From Acidobacteriaceae bacterium (GTDB taxonomy: Bacteria; Acidobacteriota; Terriglobia; Terriglobales; Acidobacteriaceae): 52,185 nt of DNA. Shown here in pieces: positions 2,815 through 20,943 of the stretch. Made by a program: the position numbers and the translations under genes. Under the pieces are notes generated by a model. The model was not told where the DNA came from. It did not search any database and was given only the letters and a program-made list of their open reading frames with translations. Location: contig PLXE01000119.1 of NCBI GenBank assembly GCA_003151335.1, positions 1-52,185 on the forward strand. The letters are read 5' to 3'. Within the stretch, counting starts at the first letter, position 1; the number at the start of each line of letters is the position of its first letter.

Positions 2815-5800
2815 TTATGCCATGACGGCATGCAGCAGTTTCAAAGGCCCGTCATCGAGGCTGTTGGGCATCGCTGCCGTGCGGTAGCCGCTTAGCTGCA
2901 CGTAGCAGTTTCCTTTCGTGTCCACAACCTCGGCATCGAAGCTTTCTTGCTCCAGATTGGGGGTGACCACGGCGTACAACTGGCTTTCAGCCAGGTCCGG
3001 CGCACGCAGCAAGGACACTTGATGAACGTCCTGTGGCAGACCAAACCGGTTTTGCACGCTCATTTCCCAGAGCCCGGCGGTCTGGAAGCAAAGCTCGATC
3101 AGCCGTGGCGCCATCAGCGTCGGCCGGTTGGACGGCTGGTGGTTGCTGGGCAATCCTCCGGCCATCAACCCGATCATCCGCTTTCCATCCCACCAAGCCC
3201 GCTCCAGGACTTGGTACGCCGGTCCGTGAAAGTAAACGCGATAAATTTCGGCGGCTTCCACGATGGAGTCGGAAGACGTAACCAAGGCCTTCGCGGTCAC
3301 CGCGGTTGGCGTCCGCTTCGACAGTCGCACCCGGGCCGTGAAGTGAATAGTCTCTTGCGGCTCCGCATGGTTGGGCAGCATGCGACGGCCAATGAGCTGG
3401 CAATCTGCGAGCAACCTGTCACCTTGCGGGTAGTACACGGCCTGGATCGTCACGGCCCGCGGCTCATCACGGTAGAACTTGAACGGTGACAGGAAATTCA
3501 CCTCTTCCACCGCCTCGACATGCCAGCCGGGATGCACGCGCAGGGCAGCCTCGGCGAATCCCTCGATCCCCATGACTCCGGGCAGCACCGGCGTGCCGCC
3601 GATCCGGTGATCGTACAAGAATGGTTGAAGTTTGGGATCGAGAGTGGTCTCCATGGTCAAGCCACTGTAAATACCCATTCCGGTGATCTTGCCCATCATC
3701 GGTCCTTGCCGCAGCTTTTCGGTGGTAGCGGCGAGGGCGTCGGTGTCAAGTCCACCGGTGTCATCCCATTCATTCAGAAGAATGCCCATGCGCTGGCCTA
3801 TGACAACTTCACCGCTCGTCCCTCCTGAGGTCAGTTCGCGGCGGACCAGCGGAATGCCGGCTTCGGGCGGCAACATATCGATGCCGGCCAGTTCCATCAT
3901 CTTCGGAATGGAGCCGCGCGTAGCCATGCCGATACCGCCCCACGCTGTCCAGTCGATGACGATGCCGCGGGTACCCGGCCGAGTCGTGCGGAAGCTTGAC
4001 GTGATCTTGCACAGCAGGTCGTTGGCGGAACTGTAATCGGTCTGTCCTCCGTTGCCGAAGCGGCCGGCAATCGAGCTGAATACCACCGTTGCGCCGAGGG
4101 GCATATCGCCGATAGCATGCAAAAGGTTGAACCAGCCGTCGCTCTTGACGTCAAACACCAGGTCGAACTCGCGCGGATCTTTGTCTGGCAGGAAATGGCT
4201 GCGCTCGATTCCCGCAGCGTGCAGCAGCACGTCAATGCGACCGCTGCGCTCCCGCACCTGGTTGATGATTCGGGCCACTCCATCCGCATCCGTTAGGTTG
4301 ACGGCGAAGTAGTGTGCCGCGCCTCCCGCGGCTCGCACCGCGTTGATCGCATTCTTAGCGGCTTGCGCACGTTCGAGGGCAGCTAGCTCCTTTTCCACCA
4401 GCGCCGGTGTAGCTCGCTCACCGCGCGCCTGGATGCGCGCGAACAGATCGCGCTTCAGGCCTTCCTTGTCGCTCACGAAGCGCTTGAGGTCGGGGTTGTC
4501 CGGATCGGGTTCGGGCACCAGATCAAGCAAGTAGAACGTGCCGCCCGAAGCTGCCGCCAGGTCGGCGGTGATGGCCGAGACGATGCTTCCCGCCGCGCCG
4601 GTGATCAGAAAGACGGTGTCGCTGTCGAGTCTCAATCCGGGCTGTCCATCGGCCGCGGGCTGTTCTTGCAGTCCCACCGTCCAGCGCTGCCCGTCCTTGT
4701 AGCCGATCTCGATTGCGCCGGGGTCGCGCAGGGTTTCCTCGATAAGGATTTCCGCCAGTTCCGACGGCTTGCGCTCGGCTTCGAAATCGACCGCTTTGAC
4801 GAGGGCGTCCTGCCGCTCCCGTTTATACGTCTTGGTAAAGCCCACGACCGCGCCGCCCAGGGGTGCGACCGCTCCGGCGTCGTCGTAACCGTGCTGCCCG
4901 CCCAGTCGCGTCGCCGACACCAGGAATGTACCCGGCTTCGCAACCTGGTCGAACAGAACACGCATGGTGGTATAAAGCGATTTCGCCCGGACCCACAGGG
5001 CCTGGCGCCAGGACGCAAGGTCCATGCCGGCAAGATTGTCCTCGTGATCCAGCGCGGACAGCCAATACACTCCTTGCACCGGCCCGGCGGCCAGCCACTC
5101 TTTGAGGCGATGGCTCAGCGCATCGGCATCCGGCGCGTCCTTGATCCATAGGACTTCTACACCCCTCATCGTCTCCAGCCGTTGCGCCAGTGCCTGTCCC
5201 ACTCCACCGTTGTCGGGCATGATCACCACGCGGTTTCCGCGGGCGAAGGTCACACCGGTTGGCTTACAAACCTTAAGCGGCGGCCGCAGATTGGGAACTG
5301 GCACGCGGCGTGGAATAAGGTTGGCAGCATCGAAACTGGCGACTGGCGGGTGCGTCGGCGTAACCGCTTTCGCAGCAGGGGTTACGGGGGCAGGTGCGCT
5401 GACCGTTGTCCGCTGCCCGGCATGGGCAAATTGAATGACGTGGGCCAGGGTTGGGAAGTCGCGCAGCTTGAGGTTCTCATCGCGCGGGATGTTATACGCC
5501 GCTCGAATGGCGGCGAACATCTCCGCCTGCTTAACGGTGTCTATGCCGAGGTCGGCTTCCAGGTCAAGATCCAGGTCCAACATGTCCTTGGGGTAGCCCG
5601 TCTTCTCGGCCACGATCTCCAACACCTTGTCTTTGATGGAATCGTCTGTGATAGCTGGAGCCGCGACAGTTGTCGGCGTTGGAGCGGCTGGTTCGGCGGT
5701 GATTGGCGACGACGGAGCCGTGCTCGCCAAGTCCGGCCGCTTCTCATAGACGAACCGGATCACGTGCGCCAGAGTTGGGTAGTCGCGCAACTTGCGGTTC

Positions 5801-8800
5801 TCGTCGCGCGGGATGCTGTAGATCTCACGGATGGCGGCAAACATCTCCGCCTGCTTAACCGTATCCACGCCGAGGTCCGCTTCCAGATCAAGATCGACAT
5901 CCAGCATGTCTTTGGGATAGCCGGTCTTCTCCACCATCAAGGCGAGAATGCGCTCCTTCACGTCATCGGCAGCGCCGTCCTTGGGAGATGTCACCGGGGA
6001 CGGCGGGGTCGGCAGTTGGGTTGCGGCGAGGTTCGGTACGGCTGCGGGTATCTCAGCCGTCTTCGCCACGGGAGTCGCGCTGGCTAGGTCGGGTCGCTTC
6101 TCGTACACGAACCGAATTACGTGCGCCAGAGTTGGGTAGTCGCGCAACTTGCGGCTCTCGTCGCGCGGGATGTTGTAGATCTCGCGGATGGCGGCGAACA
6201 TCTCCGCCTGCTTGACGGTGTCCACGCCGAGGTCCGCTTCCAGATCAAGATCGACATCCAGCATGTCTTGGGGATAACCAGTCTTCTCTACCATCAACGC
6301 GAGGATGCGTTCCTTCACCGACTCGCCAGCGCCGTCATTCGGAGATATCACCGCGGACACTGGCGTGATCGGTTGGGTTGCGACGGGAATCGGCACGGCT
6401 GCAGGTATCTCAGCCTTCTTCGGTGACGACGGAGCAAGAGCCAGGTCGGGCCGCTTCTCGTACACGAAGCGAATCACATGCGCCAGCGTGGGATAGTCGC
6501 GCAGCTTGCGGTTTTCATCGCGCGGGATGTTGTAGATCTCACGGATGGCGGCGAACATTTCCGCCTGCTTGACGGTGTCCACGCCAAGGTCCGCTTCCAG
6601 ATCAAGATCGATATCCAGCATGTCTTGCGGATATCCGGTTTTCTCCACCATCAAGGCAAGGATGCGTTCCTTCACGAGATCCCCAGCGCCGTCTTTAGGA
6701 GACGTCACCGCGGGTATCGGCGCAGGAGCTTTCGTTTCCACTTTCATCTTCGCCGGCGGGGCCGATGCCACTGCGGCTGATGTCCTTTCTTGAAGCGGCT
6801 CGCTCTTTGCCACAACCTTTGGCGGTGCAGAAGCTACGGGCGCTGCGACTTTTGTCTGCACCTCAGATGTAACGACCGCTCGGGATGTTGCGGCTGGCGC
6901 CGTCGCGGCCTCCTTGACGGCTCCTGCCATCCGCGCTGCCAGCCCTTGGTCGCGCACGCGCAGCGTACGGTGAACTACTTCCAGGTCGGCGACCGGGCGG
7001 CCTGCCATCCGGCTTAGCCAAGCGTTCCAGACGTTCTCGTCGGCAATACGATAGGCGTAGCCCAGAGCATTCGGTCCGCGACGGATCCCGTCTTTGGTCG
7101 GCACCCAGCGCAACAGAATCATGCTGATCTGGGAACCGAAACCGGCGCCCAAGTGCATGGCATACTGCACGGGATAGGCGCCGCCCTTCGACAGGTTCAA
7201 CAGACCCAACTCGGGATCGACTTCCTTGAAGTTGGCGACGGGCGGCACTAATCCCGTTTCCAGGGCCTTCACCGCAAGGACATCTTCGATGCCGGTGGCC
7301 ATGGCGTGGCCAGTCAAGCCTTTGGTATTGGCAATGACGATTCGATCGGAGCTATCGCCGAAGACGCGACGCAGTGCGTGGATCTCCGCCGAGGCGCTGC
7401 CGCCACGCGCGGGCGTGTAAGTTTCGTGGGAAACGAAGACCATCTGCGGCGCGATCTGATTGCGGGCGACGCCGCTGCAGGTTTCGGCTTCGGCGACCAG
7501 GCCTTCCATCACCTGGCCAATGTGCTGCACGTCGAGGCGAGTGCCATGAAATGCGCTGTTGGCTGTCACCGCGCTCAACACTTCACAGATAGGCTGGATT
7601 CCGCGCTCACGCGCAGCATCCAGGCTCTCCACCACAAGGGCGGCGGCGCCCATGCCCATGATCAGGCCATGCCGGCGGCGGTCGAAGGGAATCGCGGCGT
7701 CTTCAACGTTTTCATCGGTGGCGGCGGCTCCGCTGGCCAGAAAACCGGCGCCCATCCAATCGATCAGGTTGTCGGAGGTGACATCGTCTGCCGAGATGAC
7801 GATGACGCGGCGGCACCGTCCGGCGCGAATCCAGTCTTGCGCCAGCGCAACGCCTTGGGCGGTAGTGGCGCAGGCGGAGTTGATTTGCGTATTGGGACCG
7901 CGCGCGCCGATCAGTTCGGCGAATTGCGAATGTCCCATGGACAAGACTCTGAGCAGGAAGCGCCGGTCGAAGACATACGGCTGTTTTTCGATGGCCAGGC
8001 GCAACTCCTCGATGCGCCGGTCGATCTCCTGCCCCAGACCCGAATGGCCGTTACCTGCGGCCCGGGCACGGAGGCCTTCCAGCAAAGCCAACTGCTGGCG
8101 GCGCTCATGGTCTTTGTAATAGCTACCCATTATGTCGGCGAAGGAGTCACAGCCGGGGAAGGCGGAACCACAAATTACGCCGGTATCGTCGCGCATGGCG
8201 TCTGGCAATCCCCAGCGGTCCGGCAACTGGGTGCCTTTGGTCGTGGTCTTATAACGCATGACCAGCGGGATGCCAGCGTCACGCAGCGCGTCGATTCCAG
8301 CGCCGATAGCCAGGCGAGTGACACGGTCGAAAGCGGCCAGGTGTTCCGAGGGAACGCCGAATTCACTTCCCAGATCGAAGGCGCCCCCGCGGCCCGCCAG
8401 CTTGATGACATCCGCCACGTCGTGAATGGATTCAAACGTGGCCTCTCCCTGCTCGCTCTTAACCAGGCGCAAGATGTTCTTGTCCAACATGCCCTGGCGG
8501 AAGCGCGCTGGGATGGCGCTGATGAATTGATCACCGCGCAAGATGCGTTCGATGTTGCCATCGTCGAAGATGCGCTCAGTCCCAGGCAGACCCAACGACG
8601 CGCCGGTGATGCCCACTTGAAGACTGGCGGTGGCGGGCTTCTCGCCGTGGTTAATTTGCCAGCCGGCTCGTTCCAGAGTCTCGGCGAACAGGCGACCAAG
8701 TTCGTTGTACCCATTACCGTTCGCAGGGATCGACGGCGACGCGACGGAGGGGGGAGCAATTGCCGCCAGCGGCATTGGTTTGGTGTCGTTCGCTGGAGTG

Positions 8801-11694
8801 GCGATTGCCGATTGCGAGAACGCAGGTTTCGCTGGAACCTCGACCGCAGCTTCAGTCAGTCCGCGGCCCAGTCCAGCGGCATACATGGCGCACAGCGCCT
8901 GGTTGAACGCCGGAATGTCGCCGACTTTGGGATGATTCGTGAACAGCGAAACCACATCGCCGCGTTCGCCGAGCACTTCCTCAGCAAATCCCTGCAACGC
9001 CTTCTTCGGCCCGACTTCAACATAGACGCGAGCCCCAGCATCGTAGAGCGTGTTTAGGCCTTTCACAAACTGCACCGGACTGGCGACTTGCAGTGCGAGG
9101 AGATCCAGCATCTGCGGAACAGCATCAGGTCCCGTGGGATAAAACTCCCCGTTCACGTTGGCGATGACTGGCACACGAGGTGGTTGCATGTGCAGGTGCG
9201 ACAACATCTCGCGCAGCGGTTCGCTGGCCGGCGCAACAATCGACGTGTGAAACGCGTGGCTGACCGGCAACGGCACTACGTTGTAGCCAGCTTGCAGGAA
9301 GATCTCCATGGCCTGTTCGACCGCTTTGCTGGCGCCGCCGATGACCGACTGCTGCCCGCTGTTTACGTTGGCGATCACCACGTAGCCGTTGATGGTCTTC
9401 AGGATTCGCTCGACTTCAGCCAGCGGCGCAAAGACCGCCGCCATCTTTCCGGTATCTTTCACCGCCACGCGAGCCATGCCGCGGCCGCGGGCGCTAACCG
9501 CTCCCAATGCGTCCTCGAAGGTGAGAGAACCGGACGCAACCAAGGCGCCGTATTCGCCCAGGCTGTGTCCCATGGTCATGTCGGGCTGGATGCCGTAGGC
9601 GGCCAACAGCCGGGTCAGAGCCAGGTCGATGGTCAGCACAGTGGGCTGAGTGATTTCAGTCTGGCGTAGATCCTCTTCAGCTTTCGCCACGGCGTCCGCG
9701 TTAGTTTGGTCAACGAAGACAAACTCACTCAGCGGCTTGCCGAGTAGTGGGGTCATGATGCGGTCCGCTTCGGCAAAAGTTTCGGCCACGATGGGTTCGG
9801 CGGCGCGCAGCGGCTCAAGCATGTTGACGTACTGCGAGCCTTGCCCGGTGTATAGGAACGCCACTTTGCCCGCAGGGCCGCGTCCACGGAAGATGCCTTG
9901 TGGACGCAGGGCCTTCCAGATCGGAACTTGGTTGGCTTTCAACGCCTTCAAAGCTCTGGCCGATTTGTCCGCCAGATCGGCGGCGTCGGCATAGTCGATC
10001 ACAAGGCGTTCCGGCGCTCTCAGGTCCGCTTCCGCCGGAGCGGTAGGCGCAGGCGCGCGACCCGCCGCGGCATCTTTCTGGACTGCCTGGAGACGCTCGG
10101 CCAGTGCCGCATCCGACGAGGCACCGATCACCAGCGCGCCACGCAACGGAGCTTTGTAGGAGGCAGCCGCAGTTGACGGAGGCGTAACTGTTGCCGCATT
10201 GAAACTTCTCTCTACCACGACTGACGAGGGTGTAGTGACAGCTACCGACCGCTTGCCATTTCCGTTGAGCCTGCCGGGAATGTACTCTTCCAGCACGGCG
10301 TGAAAGTTGGTGCCGCCAAAGCCAAAGGCGCTGAGGCCGGCACGCCGCGGGGTATCTGCTGGGACCATCCACGGACGCAACTCAGTATTGACATACAGTG
10401 GGGAGTGAGCAAAGTCGATAGCCGAATTGGGATGCTCGCAATTCACGCTGGGGGGCAACACCTTGTCGCGAAGCGCCAGGGTTGCCTTCAGTAATCCAGC
10501 CGCGCCGGCAGCTCCCTTAAGATGCCCGATGTTCGATTTGACCGAGCCCAGCGCCACCGACCCAGCGGGAAGATGAAAACTGCTGAGCACTTCAGTCATG
10601 CTCTGGAGCTCGATGGCGTCGCCCACGCTGGTCGAGGTGCCGTGGCCTTCCATCAGCGTCGCGGTAGCGGGAGATAACCCGGCATTCTGCCAGCCGCGCT
10701 CGATGGCGAGTTTCTGGCCAATCGGGTTGGGCGCCGTAATCCCTTTTCCCTTGCCGTCGCTCGCCCCGGCGATACCGCGCAGCACGGCGTAGATCTTGTC
10801 CCCGTCGCGCTCGGCATCGGCCAGACGCTTGAGCAAAAAGATGGCAGCGCCTTCACCCATGACGAAGCCATCGGCCCCCTCGGCGTAGGGCCGGCTACCG
10901 GTTGCCGAGAGCGCGCCGATCTTGCAGAACTTGACGAAGGTTGGGGCACCCATGTTGCGGTCAATCCCGCCGCAGACTGCCACGTCAAAATCGTTCTCTA
11001 CGAGTCCTTCGACTGCCGAACTAATCGCCGCCATCGCCGATGCGCAGGCGGCGTCCACCACGTAATTGGGGCCGTGGAAGTTGTAAAGGTTGGCGATGCG
11101 GCCGGCAATGCAGTTGGCCAATTCGCCGGGCATGCTGTCTTCCGTAATCTCGGGGAGCAGCTTGCCAATGCGGTCGTGCAATTCGCGGGTGATGTCGCGG
11201 CGGGCCGCGGCGGGCAATGCGGCGAAGCTGGCGCTTTCGGCCAGCTCACGGGCGTATTCCGGAAAGTGGACACGCAGCGATGTGAGGTAATGTCTTTCTC
11301 CGGCCATGGCATTGCCCAGGATCACCGCTGTGCGATCGAGATTCATCGGCCGCGCGGGATAGCCGTAATCTTCCAAGGCTTCGCGGGTACAAGCGATGGC
11401 CCATTTTTGGGCAACGTCCATGGCATCGACAACGCGCGGCGGAATGGGCAAGTGCCACTTTCCAGGCTCCCATACGTGCTCGCGTACCCAGCCGCCGATC
11501 TTGGAGTAGGTCTTGTCGGGTGCAGCGTGATCGGCATCGTAGTAAAGCGCAGCGTCCCAACGGCTGGGCGGGACCTCGCTGATGCTGTAACGGCCGTTCT
11601 TCACGTTTTGCCAGAAAGCCGGTACGTTCACGGCGTCGGGCAGAACTGCCCCTGCTCCCACAATCGCAATGGCACGATATGCGGTGTTTTCCAT
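2815..11694 (-). CDS. Multidomain Pfa/PKS-like lipid synthase, KS-AT-KS-ACPx4-KR-DH
   Basis: This 2,959-residue iterative type I synthase resembles PfaA-like secondary-lipid synthases. Domain order: KS1 (about 8-470; active Cys217 in DAACASA, later EGHGTSTS and NIGHLKG); acyltransferase (about 615-920; GQGSQY, Ser711 in GHSLGEYG); a second KS (about 1035-1510; Cys1275 in NSACATT, His in VSHETYT and LTGHAMA); four ACP repeats (about 1667-2090) separated by Ala/Pro linkers; a ketoreductase (ITGAAGS near 2362, Ser in FSSIAG, Tyr2554 in YSSAN); and a C-terminal hotdog dehydratase (His2696 in an HxxxGxxxxP motif). Both KS domains keep Cys-His-His, so neither is a chain-length factor. No enoyl reductase or thioesterase is visible. 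All four ACPs have Thr at the usual Ser. An AGGAAG box precedes the ATG. It likely builds a long acyl chain from malonyl-CoA, perhaps supplied by the next gene; the product is unknown. Confidence 0.92.
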   Translation of the reverse strand: MENTAYRAIAIVGAGAVLPDAVNVPAFWQNVKNGRYSISEVPPSRWDAALYYDADHAAPDKTYSKIGGWVREHVWEPGKWHLPIPPRVVDAMDVAQKWAIACTREALEDYGYPARPMNLDRTAVILGNAMAGERHYLTSLRVHFPEYARELAESASFAALPAAARRDITRELHDRIGKLLPEITEDSMPGELANCIAGRIANLYNFHGPNYVVDAACASAMAAISSAVEGLVENDFDVAVCGGIDRNMGAPTFVKFCKIGALSATGSRPYAEGADGFVMGEGAAIFLLKRLADAERDGDKIYAVLRGIAGASDGKGKGITAPNPIGQKLAIERGWQNAGLSPATATLMEGHGTSTSVGDAIELQSMTEVLSSFHLPAGSVALGSVKSNIGHLKGAAGAAGLLKATLALRDKVLPPSVNCEHPNSAIDFAHSPLYVNTELRPWMVPADTPRRAGLSAFGFGGTNFHAVLEEYIPGRLNGNGKRSVAVTTPSSVVVERSFNAATVTPPSTAAASYKAPLRGALVIGASSDAALAERLQAVQKDAAAGRAPAPTAPAEADLRAPERLVIDYADAADLADKSARALKALKANQVPIWKALRPQGIFRGRGPAGKVAFLYTGQGSQYVNMLEPLRAAEPIVAETFAEADRIMTPLLGKPLSEFVFVDQTNADAVAKAEEDLRQTEITQPTVLTIDLALTRLLAAYGIQPDMTMGHSLGEYGALVASGSLTFEDALGAVSARGRGMARVAVKDTGKMAAVFAPLAEVERILKTINGYVVIANVNSGQQSVIGGASKAVEQAMEIFLQAGYNVVPLPVSHAFHTSIVAPASEPLREMLSHLHMQPPRVPVIANVNGEFYPTGPDAVPQMLDLLALQVASPVQFVKGLNTLYDAGARVYVEVGPKKALQGFAEEVLGERGDVVSLFTNHPKVGDIPAFNQALCAMYAAGLGRGLTEAAVEVPAKPAFSQSAIATPANDTKPMPLAAIAPPSVASPSIPANGNGYNELGRLFAETLERAGWQINHGEKPATASLQVGITGASLGLPGTERIFDDGNIERILRGDQFISAIPARFRQGMLDKNILRLVKSEQGEATFESIHDVADVIKLAGRGGAFDLGSEFGVPSEHLAAFDRVTRLAIGAGIDALRDAGIPLVMRYKTTTKGTQLPDRWGLPDAMRDDTGVICGSAFPGCDSFADIMGSYYKDHERRQQLALLEGLRARAAGNGHSGLGQEIDRRIEELRLAIEKQPYVFDRRFLLRVLSMGHSQFAELIGARGPNTQINSACATTAQGVALAQDWIRAGRCRRVIVISADDVTSDNLIDWMGAGFLASGAAATDENVEDAAIPFDRRRHGLIMGMGAAALVVESLDAARERGIQPICEVLSAVTANSAFHGTRLDVQHIGQVMEGLVAEAETCSGVARNQIAPQMVFVSHETYTPARGGSASAEIHALRRVFGDSSDRIVIANTKGLTGHAMATGIEDVLAVKALETGLVPPVANFKEVDPELGLLNLSKGGAYPVQYAMHLGAGFGSQISMILLRWVPTKDGIRRGPNALGYAYRIADENVWNAWLSRMAGRPVADLEVVHRTLRVRDQGLAARMAGAVKEAATAPAATSRAVVTSEVQTKVAAPVASAPPKVVAKSEPLQERTSAAVASAPPAKMKVETKAPAPIPAVTSPKDGAGDLVKERILALMVEKTGYPQDMLDIDLDLEADLGVDTVKQAEMFAAIREIYNIPRDENRKLRDYPTLAHVIRFVYEKRPDLALAPSSPKKAEIPAAVPIPVATQPITPVSAVISPNDGAGESVKERILALMVEKTGYPQDMLDVDLDLEADLGVDTVKQAEMFAAIREIYNIPRDESRKLRDYPTLAHVIRFVYEKRPDLASATPVAKTAEIPAAVPNLAATQLPTPPSPVTSPKDGAADDVKERILALMVEKTGYPKDMLDVDLDLEADLGVDTVKQAEMFAAIREIYSIPRDENRKLRDYPTLAHVIRFVYEKRPDLASTAPSSPITAEPAAPTPTTVAAPAITDDSIKDKVLEIVAEKTGYPKDMLDLDLDLEADLGIDTVKQAEMFAAIRAAYNIPRDENLKLRDFPTLAHVIQFAHAGQRTTVSAPAPVTPAAKAVTPTHPPVASFDAANLIPRRVPVPNLRPPLKVCKPTGVTFARGNRVVIMPDNGGVGQALAQRLETMRGVEVLWIKDAPDADALSHRLKEWLAAGPVQGVYWLSALDHEDNLAGMDLASWRQALWVRAKSLYTTMRVLFDQVAKPGTFLVSATRLGGQHGYDDAGAVAPLGGAVVGFTKTYKRERQDALVKAVDFEAERKPSELAEILIEETLRDPGAIEIGYKDGQRWTVGLQEQPAADGQPGLRLDSDTVFLITGAAGSIVSAITADLAAASGGTFYLLDLVPEPDPDNPDLKRFVSDKEGLKRDLFARIQARGERATPALVEKELAALERAQAAKNAINAVRAAGGAAHYFAVNLTDADGVARIINQVRERSGRIDVLLHAAGIERSHFLPDKDPREFDLVFDVKSDGWFNLLHAIGDMPLGATVVFSSIAGRFGNGGQTDYSSANDLLCKITSSFRTTRPGTRGIVIDWTAWGGIGMATRGSIPKMMELAGIDMLPPEAGIPLVRRELTSGGTSGEVVIGQRMGILLNEWDDTGGLDTDALAATTEKLRQGPMMGKITGMGIYSGLTMETTLDPKLQPFLYDHRIGGTPVLPGVMGIEGFAEAALRVHPGWHVEAVEEVNFLSPFKFYRDEPRAVTIQAVYYPQGDRLLADCQLIGRRMLPNHAEPQETIHFTARVRLSKRTPTAVTAKALVTSSDSIVEAAEIYRVYFHGPAYQVLERAWWDGKRMIGLMAGGLPSNHQPSNRPTLMAPRLIELCFQTAGLWEMSVQNRFGLPQDVHQVSLLRAPDLAESQLYAVVTPNLEQESFDAEVVDTKGNCYVQLSGYRTAAMPNSLDDGPLKLLHAVMA
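5427..6695 (-). repeat. Four tandem ACP-encoding repeats within the synthase
   Basis: Four ACP modules at about 6695-6445, 6335-6088, 5975-5725 and 5648-5427 are nearly identical over roughly 75 residues each (core EKTGYP.DMLD.DLDLEAD, then LG(V/I)DTVKQAEMFAAIR, then DYPTLAHVI). The prosthetic-group codons lie at 6574-6576, 6217-6219, 5860-5862 and 5536-5538, spaced 357, 357 and 324 bp. All four encode Thr (ACC or ACG). The fourth module is the most divergent (AAYNIPRDENLKLRDF). Near-identity of the first three suggests recent duplication or gene conversion. Confidence 0.9.
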
Positions 11695-12142: not shown

Positions 12143-13825
12143 TTAAGCCAGGACGGCTTGTTCCGCTTCTTTCTTCACCCGGCTATAAAGTACGTCGGCC
12201 ACGTAATCCATGTCCGCAATCAGCCCCGCCTGCGCGCGGTGGACGGCGGGCAGTCCCAAGTCCGTTTCAAACGCGGCCATGTTCGCGTCGCTAACGCCAC
12301 CGGCTCCGGCCACCCAACGTAATCCCTCTTCGGCTACCTTGAGGGCCGCCTCGCGGGCGAAGATCCGGCCCAGCACCGCCAGTGCCGTCGCGTCGAAACG
12401 CGTGTTGGCTTTTTCGTTCAGCCGCCCTTCCGCACTGCGCGCGGCGCGGCGGGACAGACTGCCTGCGCACTCGGCGTAAGCAATCAATTCGCCCAGCCGC
12501 AGCAGGATGTGCTGGAAGCGGGTCAGGCGAGCAGCCCGCGCTTTTTCCATCACCTCGGCCAGCGCGTGCATGGACAACGCCGTAGTGTTGGCGCCCACCT
12601 CCGGATGCTGAACGTGCAGCGTCTCGTATTCGCGCGCCCGCTCGTGATAATACTGCCCGCGCGTCTTCAGGTGCAGTTGCCAGCGGTCGCGGCTGATGGT
12701 CATCTCCATGATCTCGGAGGTGCCTTCGTAAATCCTGGTGATGCGAACATCGCGGCTGATTTTCTCGACCATGTATTCGTGAGTGTAGCCGTAGCCGCCA
12801 AGCGCCTGAATGCTGGCGTCAGCGGCCGCGTCTCCAGCTTCCGTCGCCATGTACTTCGCGATGGCGCCTTCGGTGTTCAAGCTGCCTTCGCCGGCGTCGA
12901 TGCGCTCCGCGGTCTCTTCGATGTAGGAACGGGCCGCTTCCAGCCGGACCACGTGCGGCACGATCAGCTTGTGCGTATAACCCTGCTTTTCGGAGAGCGG
13001 TGAGCCAGCTTGAATGCGTTTGGTGGAATACGGGATCGCACGATCGAGCGCCGACCAGCCGGCTCCCAGGCCAAACGCCGCCACCATCACGCGCGTGTAA
13101 CCGAAGACTGCCTGCGCCTGCACCAGGCCCTGGCCTTCGACGCCGCCGACGAGCCGGTCGGCGTCAACGTACGCATCGTTGAGTGCCAGCGCTGCCGTGT
13201 TGCTCAGACGAATGCCGTGCTTGTCCTCGGGTTCATCGTGAGCAAAGCCCTTCGTGCTTGCGTCCACGATGAACCAGCTTGGCCCTGCGGGCGTATTGGC
13301 CAGGATGGTGTAAACGTCGGCGATTCCGCCGTTGCTGATCCACTGCTTGCTGCCATTGATCTTGTAGCCGACGATCTGGCCGTCCTTTTCGACGCGATCG
13401 GCGGTAGTCTTCAGCGCGCCCAAGTCGCTGCCCGCTTCCGGCTCCGTCGCGCCGTAGGCGAACAGAATTCCTTCGTCAGCAATGCGACCTAGCCATTTCT
13501 TCTTCTGCTCAGGAGTGGCGCCGAAAGTTATGGGATCGCTGCCAAGGAACGTCGCAAACAAGGAGGTGGCGACGCCAAGATCGATCCGCGCCATCGCTTC
13601 GCAGATGCAATAGACGTCGAAGGTGCTTCCCCCCATGCCGCCGTACTCTTCCGGGATGAACAGGAGTTGAATGCCCAACTTATCTGGGTCGCTCATGTGC
13701 CTGATAATCTCCACCGGGCATTCATCGCGTTCATCCAACGCGATCAGCTCTTCATCAGGCAGGCGTTTCTTCGCGAAATCCCGGAGCGATTTCAAACTTA
13801 ATTGCAATGTCTTCTTGGTGATCAT
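12143..13825 (-). CDS. Acyl-CoA dehydrogenase family protein
   Basis: This is a 560-residue flavin-dependent acyl-CoA dehydrogenase that would oxidise an acyl-CoA to the trans-2-enoyl-CoA and pass electrons to ETF. It shows the family signatures FAYGATEPEAGSDLGALK (FAD/substrate region), GSKQWISNGG, GGYGYTHEYMVE and, as catalytic base, Glu367 in IYEGTSEI. About 170 extra residues follow the core, as in the long FadE-like subgroup found in many Acidobacteriota. I chose the ATG at 13825 (MITKKTLQL) over an in-frame codon at 13873 because the latter would overlap etfA by 26 bp, while the former follows an AGAGAGGC box and leaves a 22-bp gap. It is last in the emo-etfB-etfA unit, so its electrons probably go EtfBA to Emo to menaquinone. 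Chain-length specificity cannot be read from the sequence. Confidence 0.93.
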   Translation of the reverse strand: MITKKTLQLSLKSLRDFAKKRLPDEELIALDERDECPVEIIRHMSDPDKLGIQLLFIPEEYGGMGGSTFDVYCICEAMARIDLGVATSLFATFLGSDPITFGATPEQKKKWLGRIADEGILFAYGATEPEAGSDLGALKTTADRVEKDGQIVGYKINGSKQWISNGGIADVYTILANTPAGPSWFIVDASTKGFAHDEPEDKHGIRLSNTAALALNDAYVDADRLVGGVEGQGLVQAQAVFGYTRVMVAAFGLGAGWSALDRAIPYSTKRIQAGSPLSEKQGYTHKLIVPHVVRLEAARSYIEETAERIDAGEGSLNTEGAIAKYMATEAGDAAADASIQALGGYGYTHEYMVEKISRDVRITRIYEGTSEIMEMTISRDRWQLHLKTRGQYYHERAREYETLHVQHPEVGANTTALSMHALAEVMEKARAARLTRFQHILLRLGELIAYAECAGSLSRRAARSAEGRLNEKANTRFDATALAVLGRIFAREAALKVAEEGLRWVAGAGGVSDANMAAFETDLGLPAVHRAQAGLIADMDYVADVLYSRVKKEAEQAVLA

Positions 13826-13847
13826 TGTCGGTGCCTCTCTTCTTTTC

Positions 13848-14831
13848 TTAGACCGAAACCTGTTTGATCTCACGGACCTTGCTGGTCAACTCCGGCAAGA
13901 ACTCCAGGATGTCAGCGACGATTCCAACGTCGGCCACCTGAAAGATGGGAGCTTTGGGGTTCTTGTTGATGGCCACGATGAAGGGGCTGCCCTTAAGTCC
14001 GGCCAGATGCTGGAACGAGCCGCTGATACCACATGCCATATAAATCTTGGGCTTGACCGTCTTCCCGGACGAGCCGACCTGGCGGGATTTCGGCAGCCAC
14101 TTGGCGTCCACCACGGGCCGCGAGCAACTCACCGCCGCGCCCAGCGTGTCGGCCAACTTCTCAGCGATGGCGATGTTGTCTTTTTCCTGGATGCCACGAC
14201 CAACGGAAACCAGAACGACATGCTTGGTAATATCGACGTCGCCCGCCTCGGCGACGATGGTCTCGAGATAGCGCCGACCCGCCGTCAGAGCACCGACGTC
14301 GGCAGACTTGTCGACGATGATGCCGTTGATGGGGGTGCTTTCCTGCGACTTGAATGCGCCAGGACGCAGGTTGAGGACCGCGCCAGATGAACTATCACAC
14401 GCCACGTGGGCGCTCACCTGCCCACCGAACTCCTGCCGGACCAGCTTGAGATTGGCCCCTTCAGCCCCTTCGATGCCCAACACATCGGAGACAAAAGCCG
14501 AGGTCATCTTGATGGCAAGACCCGGTGACAGATCGATTCCAAAATGAGAGTGAGGGACAAGCACAATGCCATCGTGGGGAAGGATGTTCACCAGGGCTTT
14601 GCGGACTAGCTCGGCATTGGGGTAAGCGAGTGCCTGATTCGCGATCTTCCATACTTCGGCGTAGGAGCCACGCAGGGTTTCGCAAACGGCGTCGAGTTCC
14701 GCGCCCCAACCGGTAACCACCGCGACCGGCGACGTGGCAGGGTCGATCTTTCTTGCGGCGGCTGCCAGTTCGGCCGCTGCATCGTCGGCGATGCCGCCCT
14801 TGTGTGCGATGTAGGCGAAGATGCGTGCCAT
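13848..14831 (-). CDS. etfA: Electron transfer flavoprotein subunit alpha
   Basis: The 327-residue protein has the N-terminal ETF domain (MARIFAYIAHKGG) and the C-terminal FAD-binding domain with the EtfA signature around VGSSGKTVKPKIYMACGISG, SFQHLAG and AINKNPKAPIFQVADVG. Together with EtfB it accepts electrons from acyl-CoA dehydrogenases through FAD. Its ATG overlaps the etfB stop codon by one base (TAATG), a sign of translational coupling. Gene order and close spacing put it in one unit with the Emo-type oxidoreductase and an acyl-CoA dehydrogenase. Length and motifs are normal, and I saw nothing suggesting the bifurcating type. Confidence 0.96.
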   Translation of the reverse strand: MARIFAYIAHKGGIADDAAAELAAAARKIDPATSPVAVVTGWGAELDAVCETLRGSYAEVWKIANQALAYPNAELVRKALVNILPHDGIVLVPHSHFGIDLSPGLAIKMTSAFVSDVLGIEGAEGANLKLVRQEFGGQVSAHVACDSSSGAVLNLRPGAFKSQESTPINGIIVDKSADVGALTAGRRYLETIVAEAGDVDITKHVVLVSVGRGIQEKDNIAIAEKLADTLGAAVSCSRPVVDAKWLPKSRQVGSSGKTVKPKIYMACGISGSFQHLAGLKGSPFIVAINKNPKAPIFQVADVGIVADILEFLPELTSKVREIKQVSV

Positions 14832-15622
14832 TAGTTCAACCCTCCTTTGGCTTTCATTAACTCAATCAGTTTGGCGATCACCTCTTCCCGGTCGCCTTCA
14901 AGCATCTCGGCTCCCTTGCCGAGCGTGGGCACGAAGTAGTCCACCCGCTTGACCTTCGCTCCGGCATCGCCGACCGCACTTGCATCTACACCGAGGTCGG
15001 ACGCGCCGAGAGTTGGGACCTCCAGCGACGCTACCTGCCGGATGCCTCGCATCCCGACGTAACGCGGCTCATTGATCCCGGTCTGAATCGAGAGCACACA
15101 GGGGAGATCGATCTCGTTCATTTCCTTGTTGCCGCCTTCGATCTCCCGGCTTACTCTCAGCTTGCCGCCGTCAAGGACGGAAATGGAATTCACCAGCGAA
15201 GCGAACGGATAGTCGAGCAGGGCCGCCAGCATCCCGCCGATCTGCGCGCCGCCGTCCTCAGCCTGGACCCCGGTCAGGATCAGATCGAAATGACCCTTGT
15301 GCACGTAGCCTTTCAGGATGGTCGCAATGCCCTTGCCGTCGGACCCGTCGAAGGACTCGTCGGAGAGCAGCACGCCTCGGCTGGCGCCTATGGCCATTTC
15401 GCGACGTAGCACTTCCTCGTCGTCGTCGCTGCCAACTGTAACCACGGTGACGCTGCCGCCGGCCTTGGCGGTGATCTGCAGCGCCTCTTCGACGGCGTAG
15501 TTGTCGGGTTCGTTGATCGAATACACCAGGTCGTCTCGTTCGATATCGTTCCCGGCGGTGTTTAGCTGAATTTCGTTTTCCGAAGTGTCAGGTACTCGTC
15601 TTACGCAAACTAGAATTTCCAC
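14831..15622 (-). CDS. etfB: Electron transfer flavoprotein subunit beta
   Basis: The 263-residue protein begins VEILVCVRRVPDTSE and keeps the EtfB nucleotide-binding core (NEPDNYAVEEAL, TGVQAEDGGAQIGGMLA, GINEPRYVGMRGI). I chose the GTG at 15622 because a GGGGAG box sits seven bases upstream and the family begins at this point. An in-frame ATG at 15685 would add 21 residues and overlap the upstream gene. It pairs with EtfA to make the soluble FAD carrier between acyl-CoA dehydrogenases and the membrane oxidoreductase encoded just upstream. Confidence 0.95.
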   Translation of the reverse strand: MEILVCVRRVPDTSENEIQLNTAGNDIERDDLVYSINEPDNYAVEEALQITAKAGGSVTVVTVGSDDDEEVLRREMAIGASRGVLLSDESFDGSDGKGIATILKGYVHKGHFDLILTGVQAEDGGAQIGGMLAALLDYPFASLVNSISVLDGGKLRVSREIEGGNKEMNEIDLPCVLSIQTGINEPRYVGMRGIRQVASLEVPTLGASDLGVDASAVGDAGAKVKRVDYFVPTLGKGAEMLEGDREEVIAKLIELMKAKGGLN

Positions 15623-15668
15623 AGTCGCACTCCCCAATGGTTTTGGTTCGAAAGTTATTGGCAAGGTT

Positions 15669-17801
15669 CTACGCGAAAACCTCACTCGTCAGCTTGTCGT
15701 GTTCCGGTTGTGCTGGCGCTGGGCGCACAAGTTGTTTGTCCACCAGTTCCGCCAAGTCGATGGCGGTCATCTTTCCTTCCATGCCAGCGACCTTAATCGC
15801 ATCTTCTATATTGACCATGCAGAACGGGCAGGCAGTCACGATCACATTGGCCCCGACTTGGGCGGCCATCTGCACTCTCTTTACGCCCATCCTCTGATCT
15901 TCTTTCGGCTCGTAGAACAGCATCAGCCCGCCGCCGCCGCAACAGAATGAGCGGTCGCGGCAGCGGTCCATTTCGACTCTCTTCAAGCTGGGAATCGCAT
16001 CCAGCACCTCGCGAGGATCGTCGTAAACCTGGTTGTGCCGGCCCAGATAGCAGGGATCGTGATAGGCGTAAACGTTGTCTGCGTTCTCCACCGGATCGAG
16101 CTTCAGGTTGCCGGACTTCACTTCCCGGCAGATGACCTGGCTGATGTGCTCGACGGGCGGCACATCTTTGTAATCATGCTTCAGCGCGTTGTAGGCGTGG
16201 GGATCGGCGGTTACGATGCGCTGGACTCCAGATGCCTTGATGGCGTCCACGTTGTGGTCTCGCAACGCCATAAACAAAGTTTCCTCGCCAAATCGCCGGG
16301 CGTCATGTCCACTATCTTTTTCCGCTGACCCCAGGATTCCGAAATTCACTCCGGCCGAGTCGAGAATCCTCGCCGTGGCGCGTCCAATCGATTGCATGCG
16401 GTCGTCGTAGGAGGTGATACTGTCCACGAAGTACAACGTCTCCGCGTTGCTTTTGGCGTCCGCGGTCTTAACATTGCACGTCTGGGAGAACTCTTTGGCC
16501 TTCGCCCACTCGGCCCTTTTCTTCTCCATCTTGCCGTAGGGGTTGCCTCGGCTCTCGAGGGCCTTCAGCGGTTTCTGCAGCGACTGGGGTACGTTGCCGT
16601 CGTCGATCATGCCCCGCCGCAAATCGACAATCTTGTCGATGTACTGGATCAGCAACGGGCACTCCTCTTCGCAAGCGCCGCAGGTCGTGCAAGACCAGAT
16701 TTCATCTTCGGAATAAATGCCGCCGATCAACGGCGTGCCATTGTCTGAGCGGCCGAACATTGGATAATGCTGGAAGCTGTAATCTCTCGCTTTGATGGTG
16801 AGGAACCTGGGCGATAGCGGCCTTCCCACCGCATTGGCGGGGCACTGGTCGGAGCAGCGCCCGCAGTCGGCGCAGGAATAGAAATCGAGCATGTGCTTCC
16901 AGGTGAAGTCTTCGAACGTCTTCACGCCGAACGATTTCACCTGATCCAGATGCTCGTCGGCGACGCCCCATCTCACCGGCTTGACAGTTCCGCGCTCCAA
17001 CTTTGCGAAGTAAACGTTGAACAGAGATGTTTCCACGTGGAACTGTATTCCAAACGGCCTGTAACACAGCAAAAAGTAAAAGGTCAGCACATCGACAAAA
17101 TAGGAACTGAGATGGAGGGTCTGGAGTGTCGGCAACGAGGTCGAGCCGAGAACGCTCTTCAACACCCACGGCAATGACAAGACAGCCAGGAATTCAGCGG
17201 GCTGGCCTTGCTGTGTCTGATAGGCCGCGTTGCTGGCCTCAAAGAGGCTCTCCGACGCCATCAGCAGCGCAATCAACGCCAGGAGGAAGATGGCGTCCGC
17301 CGGGTGACCTTTCCCGTACCTGGACGGCACCGCGTACCGGGCAGGCTTGAAGACGATCCGGCGAACAGCGGCGACGATCATGCAAAGGAAGACAATGGTC
17401 GCGGCATAGTCCTTGACGATGTCGTAGATGTGGCCGATTTTCCCCGAGGAGCCCGGCAAAACGAAATTCGGGGAGACACCGAGAATCAGCAGCGAGAAGG
17501 CCTGGGTTGCCAGAATAAGGAAGCCCGCAAAGAAAAGGATATGCATGGTCCCTGCGGTCCGGTAGCGTGGATGCTTCCACTGCCCCAGCCAAAATTGCAG
17601 GACCCTTCCCGCCCGAACTACGGGTCGATCAAAGCGCCAATCGCGCTCGCCCCGTGTGAGCGGCAGAATGCGCCTGGCCGCAATGTAGAAAAAGCACGCC
17701 AGCCCCAGAACATTGAGGAGCAAGAACAAGTCTCGCCCGCTTATCAACCAGTACGTCACTTGCGCGGGTGACTGGATGCCTTCCACCATAATGCTCAACA
17801 T
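15669..17801 (-). CDS. EtfAB:menaquinone oxidoreductase-type membrane Fe-S protein (Emo)
   Basis: This 710-residue fusion has an N-terminal NarI-like membrane part with five or six hydrophobic segments (for example DLFLLLNVLGLACFF, TIVFLCMIVAAV, FLLALIALLMAS). It is followed by two 4Fe-4S motifs (CADCGRCSDQC near residue 310 and CTTCGACEEEC near 370). Then come two HdrD-like cysteine-rich CCG modules (DPCYLGRHN ... SFCCGGGG, and ACPFC near the end). This is the architecture of the Emo family, which links EtfBA to membrane menaquinone in bacteria that lack the flavin ETF-QO. It heads the etfB-etfA-acyl-CoA dehydrogenase unit, which supports the role. The start could be the ATG at 17801 (GGAG is only one base away) or the ATG four codons later at 17789, which has better spacing. 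Confidence 0.9.
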   Translation of the reverse strand: MLSIMVEGIQSPAQVTYWLISGRDLFLLLNVLGLACFFYIAARRILPLTRGERDWRFDRPVVRAGRVLQFWLGQWKHPRYRTAGTMHILFFAGFLILATQAFSLLILGVSPNFVLPGSSGKIGHIYDIVKDYAATIVFLCMIVAAVRRIVFKPARYAVPSRYGKGHPADAIFLLALIALLMASESLFEASNAAYQTQQGQPAEFLAVLSLPWVLKSVLGSTSLPTLQTLHLSSYFVDVLTFYFLLCYRPFGIQFHVETSLFNVYFAKLERGTVKPVRWGVADEHLDQVKSFGVKTFEDFTWKHMLDFYSCADCGRCSDQCPANAVGRPLSPRFLTIKARDYSFQHYPMFGRSDNGTPLIGGIYSEDEIWSCTTCGACEEECPLLIQYIDKIVDLRRGMIDDGNVPQSLQKPLKALESRGNPYGKMEKKRAEWAKAKEFSQTCNVKTADAKSNAETLYFVDSITSYDDRMQSIGRATARILDSAGVNFGILGSAEKDSGHDARRFGEETLFMALRDHNVDAIKASGVQRIVTADPHAYNALKHDYKDVPPVEHISQVICREVKSGNLKLDPVENADNVYAYHDPCYLGRHNQVYDDPREVLDAIPSLKRVEMDRCRDRSFCCGGGGLMLFYEPKEDQRMGVKRVQMAAQVGANVIVTACPFCMVNIEDAIKVAGMEGKMTAIDLAELVDKQLVRPAPAQPEHDKLTSEVFA

Positions 17802-18606: not shown

Positions 18607-20943
18607 TTACTCGGGAAGTCCGAGGCGTCGCATCAGGTCTTTGAAGCGGGGATCAGCGCGAAGGGGGTCCAGCGCCGGGAAGCGAATGACGAAGAGCAGT
18701 TCGCTGTCTCCGTCAGAATAGGCTTTCTCCAGATATTTGAATGCCTGATCGCGGTCTCCACAGAGCGCGGCTGCGACGGCCACGGCGGCCGAGCGATCCG
18801 AGTCGTCCATCGCCAGGGTGAGGGCGAGATAGCCCTTGGCGTCGGCGCTGGCGGAGATCGGCTTCGGAATTATGTGCCGGATTTCGTTTACCGCATCCGC
18901 AAAGCGGCCCGTGTTGGCGTACAGCTGCGATAGCTTGTAATGCGCCGGAGAAAAGTTTGGATCCCGCGCAAGAATTTTCTGAAATTGCGCGAGCGATTCG
19001 GGATAGCGCCGGGCTTGCAGCAACATCAGGGCGTAGTTTGCGTTGACGATCGAGGAAAGCGGGTCGAGCGATAACGCAATTCGAAACTGTTCCAGCGCCT
19101 CGTCGTTGCGGTTTTGGGGAGCGAGATAGTTCATGGCATAGAAATAGTGGGCGGTGGCGTTGTTGGAGTTTAACTCAATGGCACGGCGAAATTCGGACTC
19201 CGCCTCTTTCCATTTCCACTCGTTCGCCAGCGCGATGGCGCGCGCGGTGTGGGCCTCGGGCAGCGTGTCATCGAGTTCGACAGCTTTGCGCACCGCCTCG
19301 TCGGCCAGCAGTTCCGCCTGCTTCGACGGCATTGGAATATAGCTGGGGGCAATGTTATAGGTGTCGGCAAGCCCCGAGTAAGCGAGCGCGTAGTTGGGGT
19401 CGGCGGCGATCGCCTGCTGGAATAAACCAATGCTCTTCTGGATGCCCTCCGGGGTACGCCCATACCAGAGCTGGCGCCCTTCGAGGTACAGCCGGTAGGC
19501 TTCCGGGTTGGTGGTTCCGGCGCGGCCCAGCCGCTGTTGCTCGTTGCCGGTCAGGTGGATTCGCAGGCTGTTGGAAATGTCGCGGGTGATCTCGCTCTGC
19601 ACTTCGGTGACGTCGGCCAGCTTGCGGACGTAGTGCGAGCCCCACAGCTCCGCGCCATCGGCTGTATCGACCAGGTCGGCATCGACACCCACTTCGTCGT
19701 CATGCTGCGTGATGCGTCCCATCAGAACGGCGCCAACCTTGAGCGTCTGGCCAATCTGGCGGGGGTCGTCTTCTTTCCCCTTAAAGCGGAAGACCGTGCT
19801 GCGGGCCATGACTTTGATGTTTGGCAGTTGAGAAAGAGTGCCGATCAGGCTCTCGGTCAAGCCATCGCCGAGGTACTCGTTGTTTGCGTCAGATGTTGCG
19901 TTGACGAATGGTAGCACGGCAATGGAAGTAATTTGCGGTGTGGCGGCCTTGGTGCGCCAGTACCAAATCCCAGCCGCCGCTACGGCGATGAGCAGGACGA
20001 CAATTGCCGTGACCCAAACCTTGCGGGCTGACGTTATTGGGCGTGCGGCCGGCGATACAGCAACTGATTTTCCCGATTCCGTTTCCCGATTCAGCCGCTT
20101 GAGGTCCGCTCGCATTTCGGACGCATGCTGGTAACGCAAACCCCGGTCCTTCTCCAGCGCCTTGTGGATGATGCGTTCCAGATCGGCTGGCACTTCAGGG
20201 TTCAGCCGCACCGCCGCTGTGGGCGTCCCATCCAGAATGGCTTTGAAGATGACAGCAGAACTCTCTCCGCGAAACGGCAGTGTGCCCGTCGCCATCTCGT
20301 ACAACACTGCGCCGAAGGAGAATAAATCGCTCCTCGCATCCAGTTCTTTCCCGCGCGCCTGCTCTGGCGACATATAAGCGACCGTGCCCAGCGTAGAACC
20401 TGGGCTGGTCAAGTGCTGCTCATCCGTGGGCATCGTGCTGACTGCCACAATCTTGTTCGACGAACTGGCCGTGGGCGCGACCTTTGCCAGCCCGAAATCG
20501 AGGATCTTGGCGTGACCACGCTTGGTGACAAAGATGTTGGCGGGTTTGATATCGCGGTGGACGATCCCTTCGGCATGCGCGGCATCCAATCCGTCGGCAA
20601 TCTCAATGGCCAGCGAGAGCACCGTCTCGATGTCTAACGGCTTTCCCGCGATGAGATGCTTCAGCGTTACGCCGTCCAGAAACTCCATGGCGATGAACGA
20701 CTGCTCACCGTGTTTGCCGATTTCGTAGATGGTGCAAATATTGGGATGATTGAGAGCGGAGGCTGCTCGCGCCTCCCGGCGAAAGCGTTCCAGGGCTGCC
20801 GGGTCCTTCGAAAGTTCATCGGGCAGGAATTTGAGGGCGACGAAGCGGCCAAGCTCAATGTCCTCAGCCTTGTACACAACACCCATGCCACCGCCCCCGA
20901 GTTTCTCGACGATGCGGTAATGGGAGATGATCTGGTCGATCAT
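18607..20943 (-). CDS. Membrane Ser/Thr protein kinase with TolB/FlgO-like domain and TPRs
   Basis: This 778-residue PknB-type kinase has its catalytic domain at about 1-275: glycine loop KLGGGGMG, Lys38 in [14 protein letters not shown] with Asp131, and DFG at 149-151. A transmembrane helix near 310-330 ([20 protein letters not shown]) separates it from an outer part. That part starts IAVLPFVN and [10 protein letters not shown], a TolB/FlgO-like fold that precedes TPRs in many bacterial regulators, and continues with several TPR units ([38 protein letters not shown]). The outer half probably senses an envelope signal or partner. The start aligns residue for residue with the two paralogues. 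There is no good ribosome binding site, but a promoter at 20972-21000 fits. Target proteins are unknown. Confidence 0.9.

What the first reader, a model, noticed from the sequence alone, without database searches (positions are those of the whole stretch)
5427..6695. All four ACP repeats carry Thr instead of the phosphopantetheine Ser
The canonical motif is LG(I/V)DS(I/L)K; here every copy reads LG(V/I)DTVKQ. Four out of four rules out a chance mutation and suggests either Thr-phosphopantetheinylation by an adapted PPTase or a carrier domain that no longer carries the arm. I have an impression that related LGIDTVKQ sequences occur elsewhere, but cannot check.
Basis: seen in the sequence. Interest (0 to 1): 0.75.

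Follow-up and report, generated by a model that had tools for sequence, protein, structure and literature searches.

The report
Carrier proteins with threonine for serine
A large bacterial lipid-making enzyme carries its growing chain on domains whose usual attachment serine is a threonine in every copy, a swap kept in relatives from several bacterial phyla that mostly come with their own arm-attaching enzyme, so the textbook rule that the arm sits on serine probably has a natural exception.

Summary
The 2959-aa synthase (window 2815-11694, minus) is KS-AT-KS2-ACPx4-KR-DH; each ACP has Thr exactly where the phosphopantetheine Ser belongs. It matches the "Type R" secondary-lipid synthase of Shulse & Allen 2011 (PMC3098273), whose main text mentions neither serine nor threonine.

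In 80 relatives fetched through KS2, not the ACP, 196 of 200 ACP rows read Thr, none Ser; four are truncated or garbled. Among 124 synthases, 96 are Thr-type (277 Thr, 2 Ser) and 28 PfaA-like (66 Ser, 0 Thr). A KS-AT tree of 63 needs one Ser/Thr change. A phosphopantetheinyl transferase is fused (19) or downstream (40) in 59 of 90 Thr synthases; in the other 31 the held sequence ends early. In this genome it follows the carboxylase gene that runs off the window.

Best reading: the arm sits on Thr, attached by this Sfp-type enzyme. E. coli ACP S36T is reported unmodifiable (PMC3340395), so this is surprising and testable. The modification itself is not shown. No paper describing it was found.

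The parts
2815..11694 (-). Type I iterative synthase, 2959 aa: KS1-AT-KS2-ACPx4-KR-DH
   Evidence: catalytic motifs
10285..11676 (-). KS1 (Cys, His, His motifs present)
   Evidence: Pfam PF00109/PF02801; motifs
8971..9858 (-). AT (GHSLGE)
   Evidence: PF00698; motif
7105..8706 (-). KS2, in the place called CLF in the Type R description, here with Cys and two His motifs
6430..6693 (-). ACP1; Thr codon ACC 6574-6576
6073..6336 (-). ACP2; Thr codon ACC 6217-6219
5716..5979 (-). ACP3; Thr codon ACG 5860-5862
5392..5646 (-). ACP4 (most diverged repeat); Thr codon ACC 5536-5538
3937..4380 (-). KR
   Evidence: PF08659; motifs
2863..3663 (-). DH (PKS_DH_N and PS-DH)
   Evidence: PF21089, PF14765
3..2768 (-). 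5' part of an acyl-CoA carboxylase gene; runs off the window start and continues on contig C57 (25-base exact overlap), where the Sfp-type PPTase gene follows it (C57:11448-12233, minus)
12143..13873 (-). acyl-CoA dehydrogenase, conserved upstream neighbour (76 of 82 loci that hold KS1)
13848..14831 (-). ETF alpha
14831..15685 (-). ETF beta
15669..17801 (-). 4Fe-4S / CCG-domain oxidoreductase

Best explanation
These are working acyl carrier domains of a Type R secondary-lipid synthase in which the phosphopantetheine arm is attached to threonine instead of serine. The Sfp-type transferase encoded at the end of the same gene row (synthase - acyl-CoA carboxylase - PPTase) puts the arm on; in a sister group the same kind of transferase is fused to the synthase's C-terminus. 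The Ser/Thr difference arose once, when this mostly KS-AT-KS2-ACPn lineage and the PfaA-like lineage parted, and has been kept since. Shown here: position, conservation, single change on the tree, PPTase linkage where the sequence reaches far enough, ACP and Sfp folds of the models. Inferred: that the arm is really on this Thr, that this PPTase does it, and that the product is a long-chain lipid.
For: Position: the Thr aligns with Ser of solved ACPs and starts helix II in the model, which matches ACP structures. Conservation: 196 of 200 rows Thr, 0 Ser, in loci chosen by KS2; 277 Thr + 2 Ser in 96 Thr-type synthases, 66 Ser + 0 Thr in 28 others, no other residue among these 345; after a redundancy filter 218 + 2 in 77 and 66 in 28. 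All four Thr codons are used (ACG 124, ACC 180, ACT 17, ACA 16, duplicates included), so the residue is held while the codon drifts. The Asp before and Lys after it are about 100% conserved. One change on a KS-AT tree of 63 synthases (35 of the 77 filtered Thr-type, all 28 Ser-type), SH-aLRT 100, quick search without mixture model. PPTase: of 90 Thr synthases 19 have it fused and 40 within 10 kb downstream; 31 show none, each with under 7.5 kb held downstream; for eight of those (L050, L052, L055, L056, L061, L081, L086, L114) one search lists a PPTase match 0.3-1.3 kb beyond the held stretch by coordinates. Thr-linked PPTase rows of 180 aa or more: W-x-x-KE-x-x-K in 48 of 48, G-x-D-h-E in 43 of 48. 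In L211 and L321 the extra ACP between AT and KS2 has Ser while the tandem ACPs of the same protein have Thr, so the two hydroxyl residues replace each other there. Own PPTase: PF01648 above cut-off, Sfp fold Z 20.5.
Against: No chemistry was seen. In E. coli, ACP S36T is stated to be unmodifiable and non-functional (PMC3340395, passages), so Thr could in principle block the arm. PPTases linked to Thr and Ser synthases do not form two clean groups, and no active-site feature was found that explains Thr acceptance; the one discriminating column rests on 11 Ser-linked sequences. Five Thr-linked PPTases (L220, L211, L313, L321, L284) lack the G-x-D-h-E pattern. Few loci test the linkage strictly: only three non-fused Thr synthases had 7.5 kb or more downstream; all three had a PPTase. 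One genome goes against it: near the L110 synthase neither tandem ACPs nor a PPTase was found in the held 21.6 kb; its Thr ACPs and its single PPTase match lie elsewhere on the chromosome.
Confidence: 0.82

Rival explanations
1. The tandem ACPs are degenerate: they no longer carry an arm and serve as scaffold, while another carrier (AcpP or a free ACP) does the work.
For: E. coli S36T is described as not modifiable (PMC3340395). The genome has ordinary Ser carriers.
Against: A dead site should drift to Ala, Gly, Val and so on; the 345 copies show only Thr or Ser. Asp before it and Lys after it stay fixed. Repeats reach six copies. Synthase active-site motifs are present and a PPTase is fused or downstream in 59 of 90 Thr synthases, the rest cut short.
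Confidence: 0.07
2. The arm is attached to another Ser or Thr of the ACP and the reader's alignment is offset.
For: Two other Thr columns (T19, T69 of the model) are conserved.
Against: T19 and T69 are also conserved in Ser-type ACPs (-21 T 100%, +61 T 92%), so they are likely structural. No conserved Ser exists elsewhere. Thr begins helix II like the canonical Ser.
Confidence: 0.03
3. The housekeeping AcpS-type enzyme loads the Thr ACPs and the linked PPTase serves something else.
For: The genome has two short AcpS-type hits besides the Sfp-type one (sequences).
Against: The Sfp-type enzyme is in the gene row or fused to the synthase. S36T is reported not to be modified in E. coli.
Confidence: 0.06
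4. Thr is a regulatory phosphorylation site, one of several Ser/Thr kinases nearby acting on it.
For: The window holds at least three Ser/Thr kinase genes.
Against: Thr is kept in loci labelled with seven phyla at the exact arm position. Whether kinases go with the synthase in relatives was not tested.
Confidence: 0.02

Closest known systems
Type R secondary lipid synthase cluster (Shulse & Allen 2011, PMC3098273; sections 7 and 8 and passages read)
   Same: One PfaA homologue KS-MAT-CLF-ACP(3-6)-KR with a PPTase gene downstream; in Koribacter (one of the five published clusters) an acetyl-CoA carboxylase gene lies between them, as here.
   Different: The main text has no occurrence of serine or threonine; figures and supplements were not seen. 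Here KS2 has Cys and a C-terminal DH is found; acyl-CoA dehydrogenase is not mentioned in that text.
PfaA of PUFA synthases (TIGR02813)
   Same: KS-AT-tandem ACP-KR order; homologous ACPs sharing KTGYP and an LEADLG-like stretch.
   Different: PfaA-like synthases sampled here have Ser and no KS2 (28 of 28). The window protein scores 995.8, under the 1010.1 cut-off; a fused-PPTase Thr synthase (L203) scores 1012.6, just over it, so the model does not separate the two kinds.
E. coli AcpP S36T mutant (PMC3340395, passages)
   Same: Thr at the same position.
   Different: A laboratory mutant described as unmodifiable; here Thr is the natural state of a whole family.
Sfp-type PPTases (Sfp 4mrt, PptT, PptAb)
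   Same: Fold (Z 20.5 to 18), GxDxE and W-x-x-KE motifs.
   Different: About 16-20% identity in those alignments; the own enzyme sits in a starred clade of 29 PPTases that are all Thr-linked.
Fungal type I FAS with its own PPT domain
   Same: PPTase domain fused to the synthase, as in the fused Thr group (fungal PPT domains appear in the fold rows; comparison otherwise recalled).
   Different: Different architecture; fungal ACP uses Ser (recalled).

Membership tests
Type R secondary lipid synthase | One protein with KS-MAT-CLF/KS-ACP(3-6)-KR | tested here: met
   KS1, AT, KS2, four ACPs, KR in one frame; KS2 has Cys, so it is a KS rather than a CLF by that residue
Type R secondary lipid synthase | PPTase gene downstream | tested here: met
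   Own genome: carboxylase gene crosses from window to C57 by a 25-base overlap, PPTase follows; synthase and PPTase on one contig in close relative L310
Type R secondary lipid synthase | PPTase with P1a x(G/D)xP and P1b' hShxH, as stated in PMC3098273 | tested here: met
   SGAP and ISLSH in the own PPTase, read by eye
Type R secondary lipid synthase | Place in the published KS tree | not tested
   Published reference sequences were not in the set
PfaA, TIGR02813 | Score over the curated cut-off 1010.1 | tested here: not met
   995.8 bits
Phosphopantetheine carrier domain, PF00550 | Score over the gathering cut-off 20.8 | tested here: met
   79.6 bits; all four repeats over cut-off singly
Phosphopantetheine carrier domain, PF00550 | Ser at the start of helix II | tested here: not met
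   Thr in 4 of 4
Phosphopantetheine carrier domain, PF00550 | Arm covalently attached | not testable with these tools
   Needs mass spectrometry
Sfp-type PPTase | PF01648 domain, two-lobed fold, GxDxE and W-x-x-KE motifs | tested here: met
   63.2 bits over cut-off 25; Z 20.5, rmsd 2.9, 212 aligned to 4mrt_A; GCDLE and LWSGKESALK

The most novel reading that the evidence does not exclude
Thr makes an orthogonal carrier system: the Ser/Thr swap keeps the housekeeping AcpS (and other enzymes that act on Ser-linked arms) from acting on these ACPs, so that only the operon's own or fused PPTase can switch the synthase on. This would be a natural second chemistry of carrier-protein activation, fixed once and spread over several phyla.
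Probability: 0.4. Interest if true: 0.85.

Novelty: new variant of a known kind. Interest (0 to 1): 0.72.

Why it matters
Serine is treated as the universal phosphopantetheine site, is used to recognise carrier domains, and S-to-T is used as a dead mutant in E. coli. A family found in loci labelled with seven phyla, with Thr in every tandem copy read and usually a PPTase beside or inside the synthase, says the rule probably has a natural exception. It offers a ready system to ask what a PPTase needs in order to use Thr, and possibly a PPTase/ACP pair that does not cross-react with Ser carriers.

Tried and rejected
Two first scripts used motif patterns that missed the repeats and were replaced by HMM searches. 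One search used a model of the window's own repeats; the Ser/Thr column was masked with X so that the reading does not favour Thr. The genome searches used a Thr-only ACP alignment (A2) and so lean towards Thr in what they find; searches used a mixed one (five Thr, five Ser rows, A3). The chance-mutation idea was dropped. An offset Ser was looked for and not found. A Thr-specific PPTase subtype was looked for: the tree needs two changes with weak branches, and a motif G-x-D-h-E-x-x-E-x-R-(S/T) is present in 28 of 51 Thr-linked and 0 of 11 Ser-linked rows; too thin to claim. phmmer of the own PPTase against PDB sequences gave nothing at 0.001; the fold comparison did. Catalytic motifs were strings I picked by eye from the protein as fitting canonical motifs that I recalled. 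Attempts to find a paper on threonine as the natural arm site: search listings; passages read in PMC4035055, PMC8436480, PMC3098273, PMC13291983, PMC3340395, PMC13343975, PMC9456370, PMC11744666, PMC8007912; none describes it. Most subscription papers are not in that library.

Cautions on counts. Some records were fetched twice (for example L036/L083, L045/L310, L101/L309, L114/L322), so hold duplicates; one search gives the filtered ACP count. The 'testable' count was self-selecting, because it let in any locus where a PPTase was seen; one search replaces it. The second motif pattern had a spacing error; one search replaces it. Nine of the 80 loci gave no ACP row and were not counted. Many relatives are MAGs; a phylum label may be wrong for a misbinned contig (for example L063). 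Two deep Thr lineages (L285, L319) are long branches and the tree program warns about their join. L285 and L319 have Thr but no KS2 was detected, so KS2 is not a strict marker of Thr.
Full report
What is there. The finding lies in one open frame on the minus strand, window 2815-11694, 2959 aa. Pfam gives two ketoacyl synthase regions, an acyl transferase, PP-binding repeats, a KR and a DH region. In every copy the motif is DLG(V/I)DTVKQAE. The Thr codons are at 6574-6576, 6217-6219, 5860-5862 and 5536-5538. In a HMMER alignment to solved ACPs the Thr stands under the Ser with no offset. In the AlphaFold2 model of ACP1 (mean pLDDT 86.5) helix II starts at this Thr, and the model matches ACP structures (best 6sm4_B, TM 0.87 by target length).

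Is it more than chance. The relatives settle it. In the window and 11 loci of the same phylum 38 of 38 readable copies have Thr; a twelfth locus gave no copy. I then fetched 80 loci through the second ketosynthase (KS2), not the ACP, and read their ACPs with a model in which the Ser/Thr column was masked: of 200 rows, 196 are Thr, none Ser, three have a gap there and one is garbled next to an X; the rows come from 71 of the 80 loci. By NCBI labels of the record titles the 71 loci with an ACP row in a later reading are Acidobacteriota 42, Actinomycetota 17, Pseudomonadota 3, Calditrichota 2, Myxococcota 2, Bacteroidota 1, Krumholzibacteriota 1, unassigned 3. The genome's five other carriers all have Ser.

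Where Ser ends and Thr begins. ACP searches in samples of other phyla brought in both kinds (with a Thr-only query; with a mixed one). Reading whole synthases gives a near rule. Synthases with KS-AT-ACPn-KR have Ser (DSIKRVEI and similar), and none of the 28 Ser-type loci holds a KS2. Synthases with KS-AT-KS2-ACPn-KR-DH have Thr (DTVKQAE). Of the 96 Thr-type loci three show no KS2: L305, which is cut off, and L285 and L319. A second Thr group, mostly 3000-4100 aa, has its PPTase fused at the C-terminus (L203-L213, L220, L313-L318, L321). A third, in Acidobacteriota, reads DTIKQAQ or DTVKQAQ, and one distant case reads DTVKQVA. In all, 124 synthases with KS, AT and readable ACPs in one frame: 96 Thr-type with 277 Thr and 2 Ser, 28 Ser-type with 66 Ser and no Thr, no other residue; after a redundancy filter 77 with 218 + 2 and 28 with 66. 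Named records agree: Nonomuraea gerenzanensis Thr; two Streptomyces, Persicobacter, Rhodococcus opacus, Azospirillum lipoferum and Methylosinus Ser (seven of the 18 plasmid-collection hits were read). A tree of the KS-AT part of 63 synthases (35 of the 77 filtered Thr-type, all 28 Ser-type), which holds no ACP columns, needs one Ser/Thr change, on a branch with SH-aLRT 100 (quick search); the program warns of two long Thr branches that meet.

The two Ser exceptions speak for the hydroxyl. In L211 and L321 the extra ACP between AT and KS2 has Ser, while the tandem ACPs of the same protein have Thr; in relatives such as L209, L210 and L318 that extra ACP has Thr. So in these 345 copies the position takes Thr or Ser and nothing else. 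All four Thr codons are in use. Asp before and Lys after the residue are fixed. No Ser elsewhere in the domain is conserved, and the two other conserved Thr are shared by the Ser-type ACPs.

The gene row and the PPTase. Downstream of the synthase the window starts inside an acyl-CoA carboxylase gene (3-2768). Its rest lies on contig C57, which overlaps the window start by 25 identical bases and continues into an Sfp-type PPTase gene. In the close relative L045/L310 synthase, carboxylase and PPTase lie on one contig. So the order here is acyl-CoA dehydrogenase - synthase - carboxylase - PPTase, with ETF and Fe-S genes further upstream. Of 82 relative loci that hold KS1, the dehydrogenase lies upstream on the same strand in 76, the whole Fe-S - ETF beta - ETF alpha - dehydrogenase - KS1 order in 29, and the carboxylase downstream in 41; many loci are cut off. 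Of 90 Thr synthases, 19 have a fused PPTase and 40 one within 10 kb downstream; 31 show none, each with under 7.5 kb held downstream. Only three non-fused ones had 7.5 kb or more, and all three had it. For eight of the 31 one search lists a PPTase match 0.3-1.3 kb beyond the held stretch, judged by coordinates. Against this stands L110: no tandem ACPs and no PPTase in its 21.6 kb, while that genome's Thr ACPs and its single PPTase match lie elsewhere. Of 10 Ser-type synthases with the KR in the same frame, 4 had a PPTase within 15 kb or fused, so linkage is not peculiar to Thr. The own PPTase scores 63.2 bits against PF01648 (cut-off 25), and its model (mean pLDDT 80.1, from 5 sequences) matches Sfp in its complex with a carrier protein (4mrt_A, Z 20.5, rmsd 2.9, 212 aligned). 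Among Thr-linked PPTase rows of 180 aa or more, W-x-x-KE-x-x-K is present in 48 of 48 and G-x-D-h-E in 43 of 48.

How it most likely works. The synthase keeps KS, AT and KR motifs, so it should need loaded carriers. The only conserved hydroxyl at the arm site is the Thr. A PPTase usually comes with it. The simplest reading is that this PPTase places the arm on the Thr. This is inference; nothing here shows the chemistry. Against it stands the statement in PMC3340395 (passages) that E. coli ACP S36T cannot be modified and is not functional; PMC9456370 uses S36T as an inactive control and PMC13343975 as an arm-site variant that no longer binds IscS (passages). This makes the natural family more surprising, and suggests that these PPTases differ from AcpS in what they accept. 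A PPTase tree did not show a clean Thr group, so what allows Thr is open.

Compared with what is known. The gene order and domains fit the Type R cluster of Shulse & Allen 2011 (PMC3098273, sections 7 and 8 and passages): one PfaA homologue KS-MAT-CLF-ACP(3-6)-KR, a PPTase downstream, in Koribacter an acetyl-CoA carboxylase gene between them, and PPTase motifs x(G/D)xP and hShxH, which I read as SGAP and ISLSH. So the system is known; its threonine was not found described in that main text (no serine, no threonine) nor in papers reached. The protein falls just under the PfaA model (995.8 against 1010.1); a fused Thr synthase falls just over it (1012.6).

Verdict. A mass spectrum of one ACP with its PPTase would decide it.

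Noticed in passing
window 7105-8706: The second KS, in the place called CLF in the Type R description, has the active-site Cys in nine of nine aligned rows (window and eight relatives) plus two His motifs, so it may be a working ketosynthase.
   Followed up: partly
window 12143-17801: Acyl-CoA dehydrogenase, ETF alpha/beta and a 4Fe-4S CCG-domain protein lie in a conserved block with the synthase; Pfam named no enoyl reductase domain in the synthase, so the dehydrogenase may do that step or add double bonds.
   Followed up: partly
L203-L213, L220, L313-L318, L321: Giant synthases with tandem Thr ACPs and a PPTase domain fused at the C-terminus.
   Followed up: partly
L211, L321: Mixed proteins: Ser in the ACP between AT and KS2, Thr in the tandem ACPs.
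   Followed up: partly
L284, L285, L286, L319: KS-KS-AT synthases with DTIKQAQ, DTVKQAQ or DTVKQVA motifs, deeper Thr lineages.
   Followed up: no
L110: Synthase start (dehydrogenase, KS1, KS2) without tandem ACPs or PPTase nearby; the genome's Thr ACPs are elsewhere on the chromosome.
   Followed up: no
window 1-25 and contig C57 end: The window contig breaks inside the carboxylase gene and overlaps contig C57 by 25 bases.
   Followed up: yes
window 18607-20943, 23469-26213, 29056-32010: Three Ser/Thr protein kinase genes with TPR or beta-propeller repeats near the operon.
   Followed up: no
window 26739-28205: Sulfatase-family gene.
   Followed up: no
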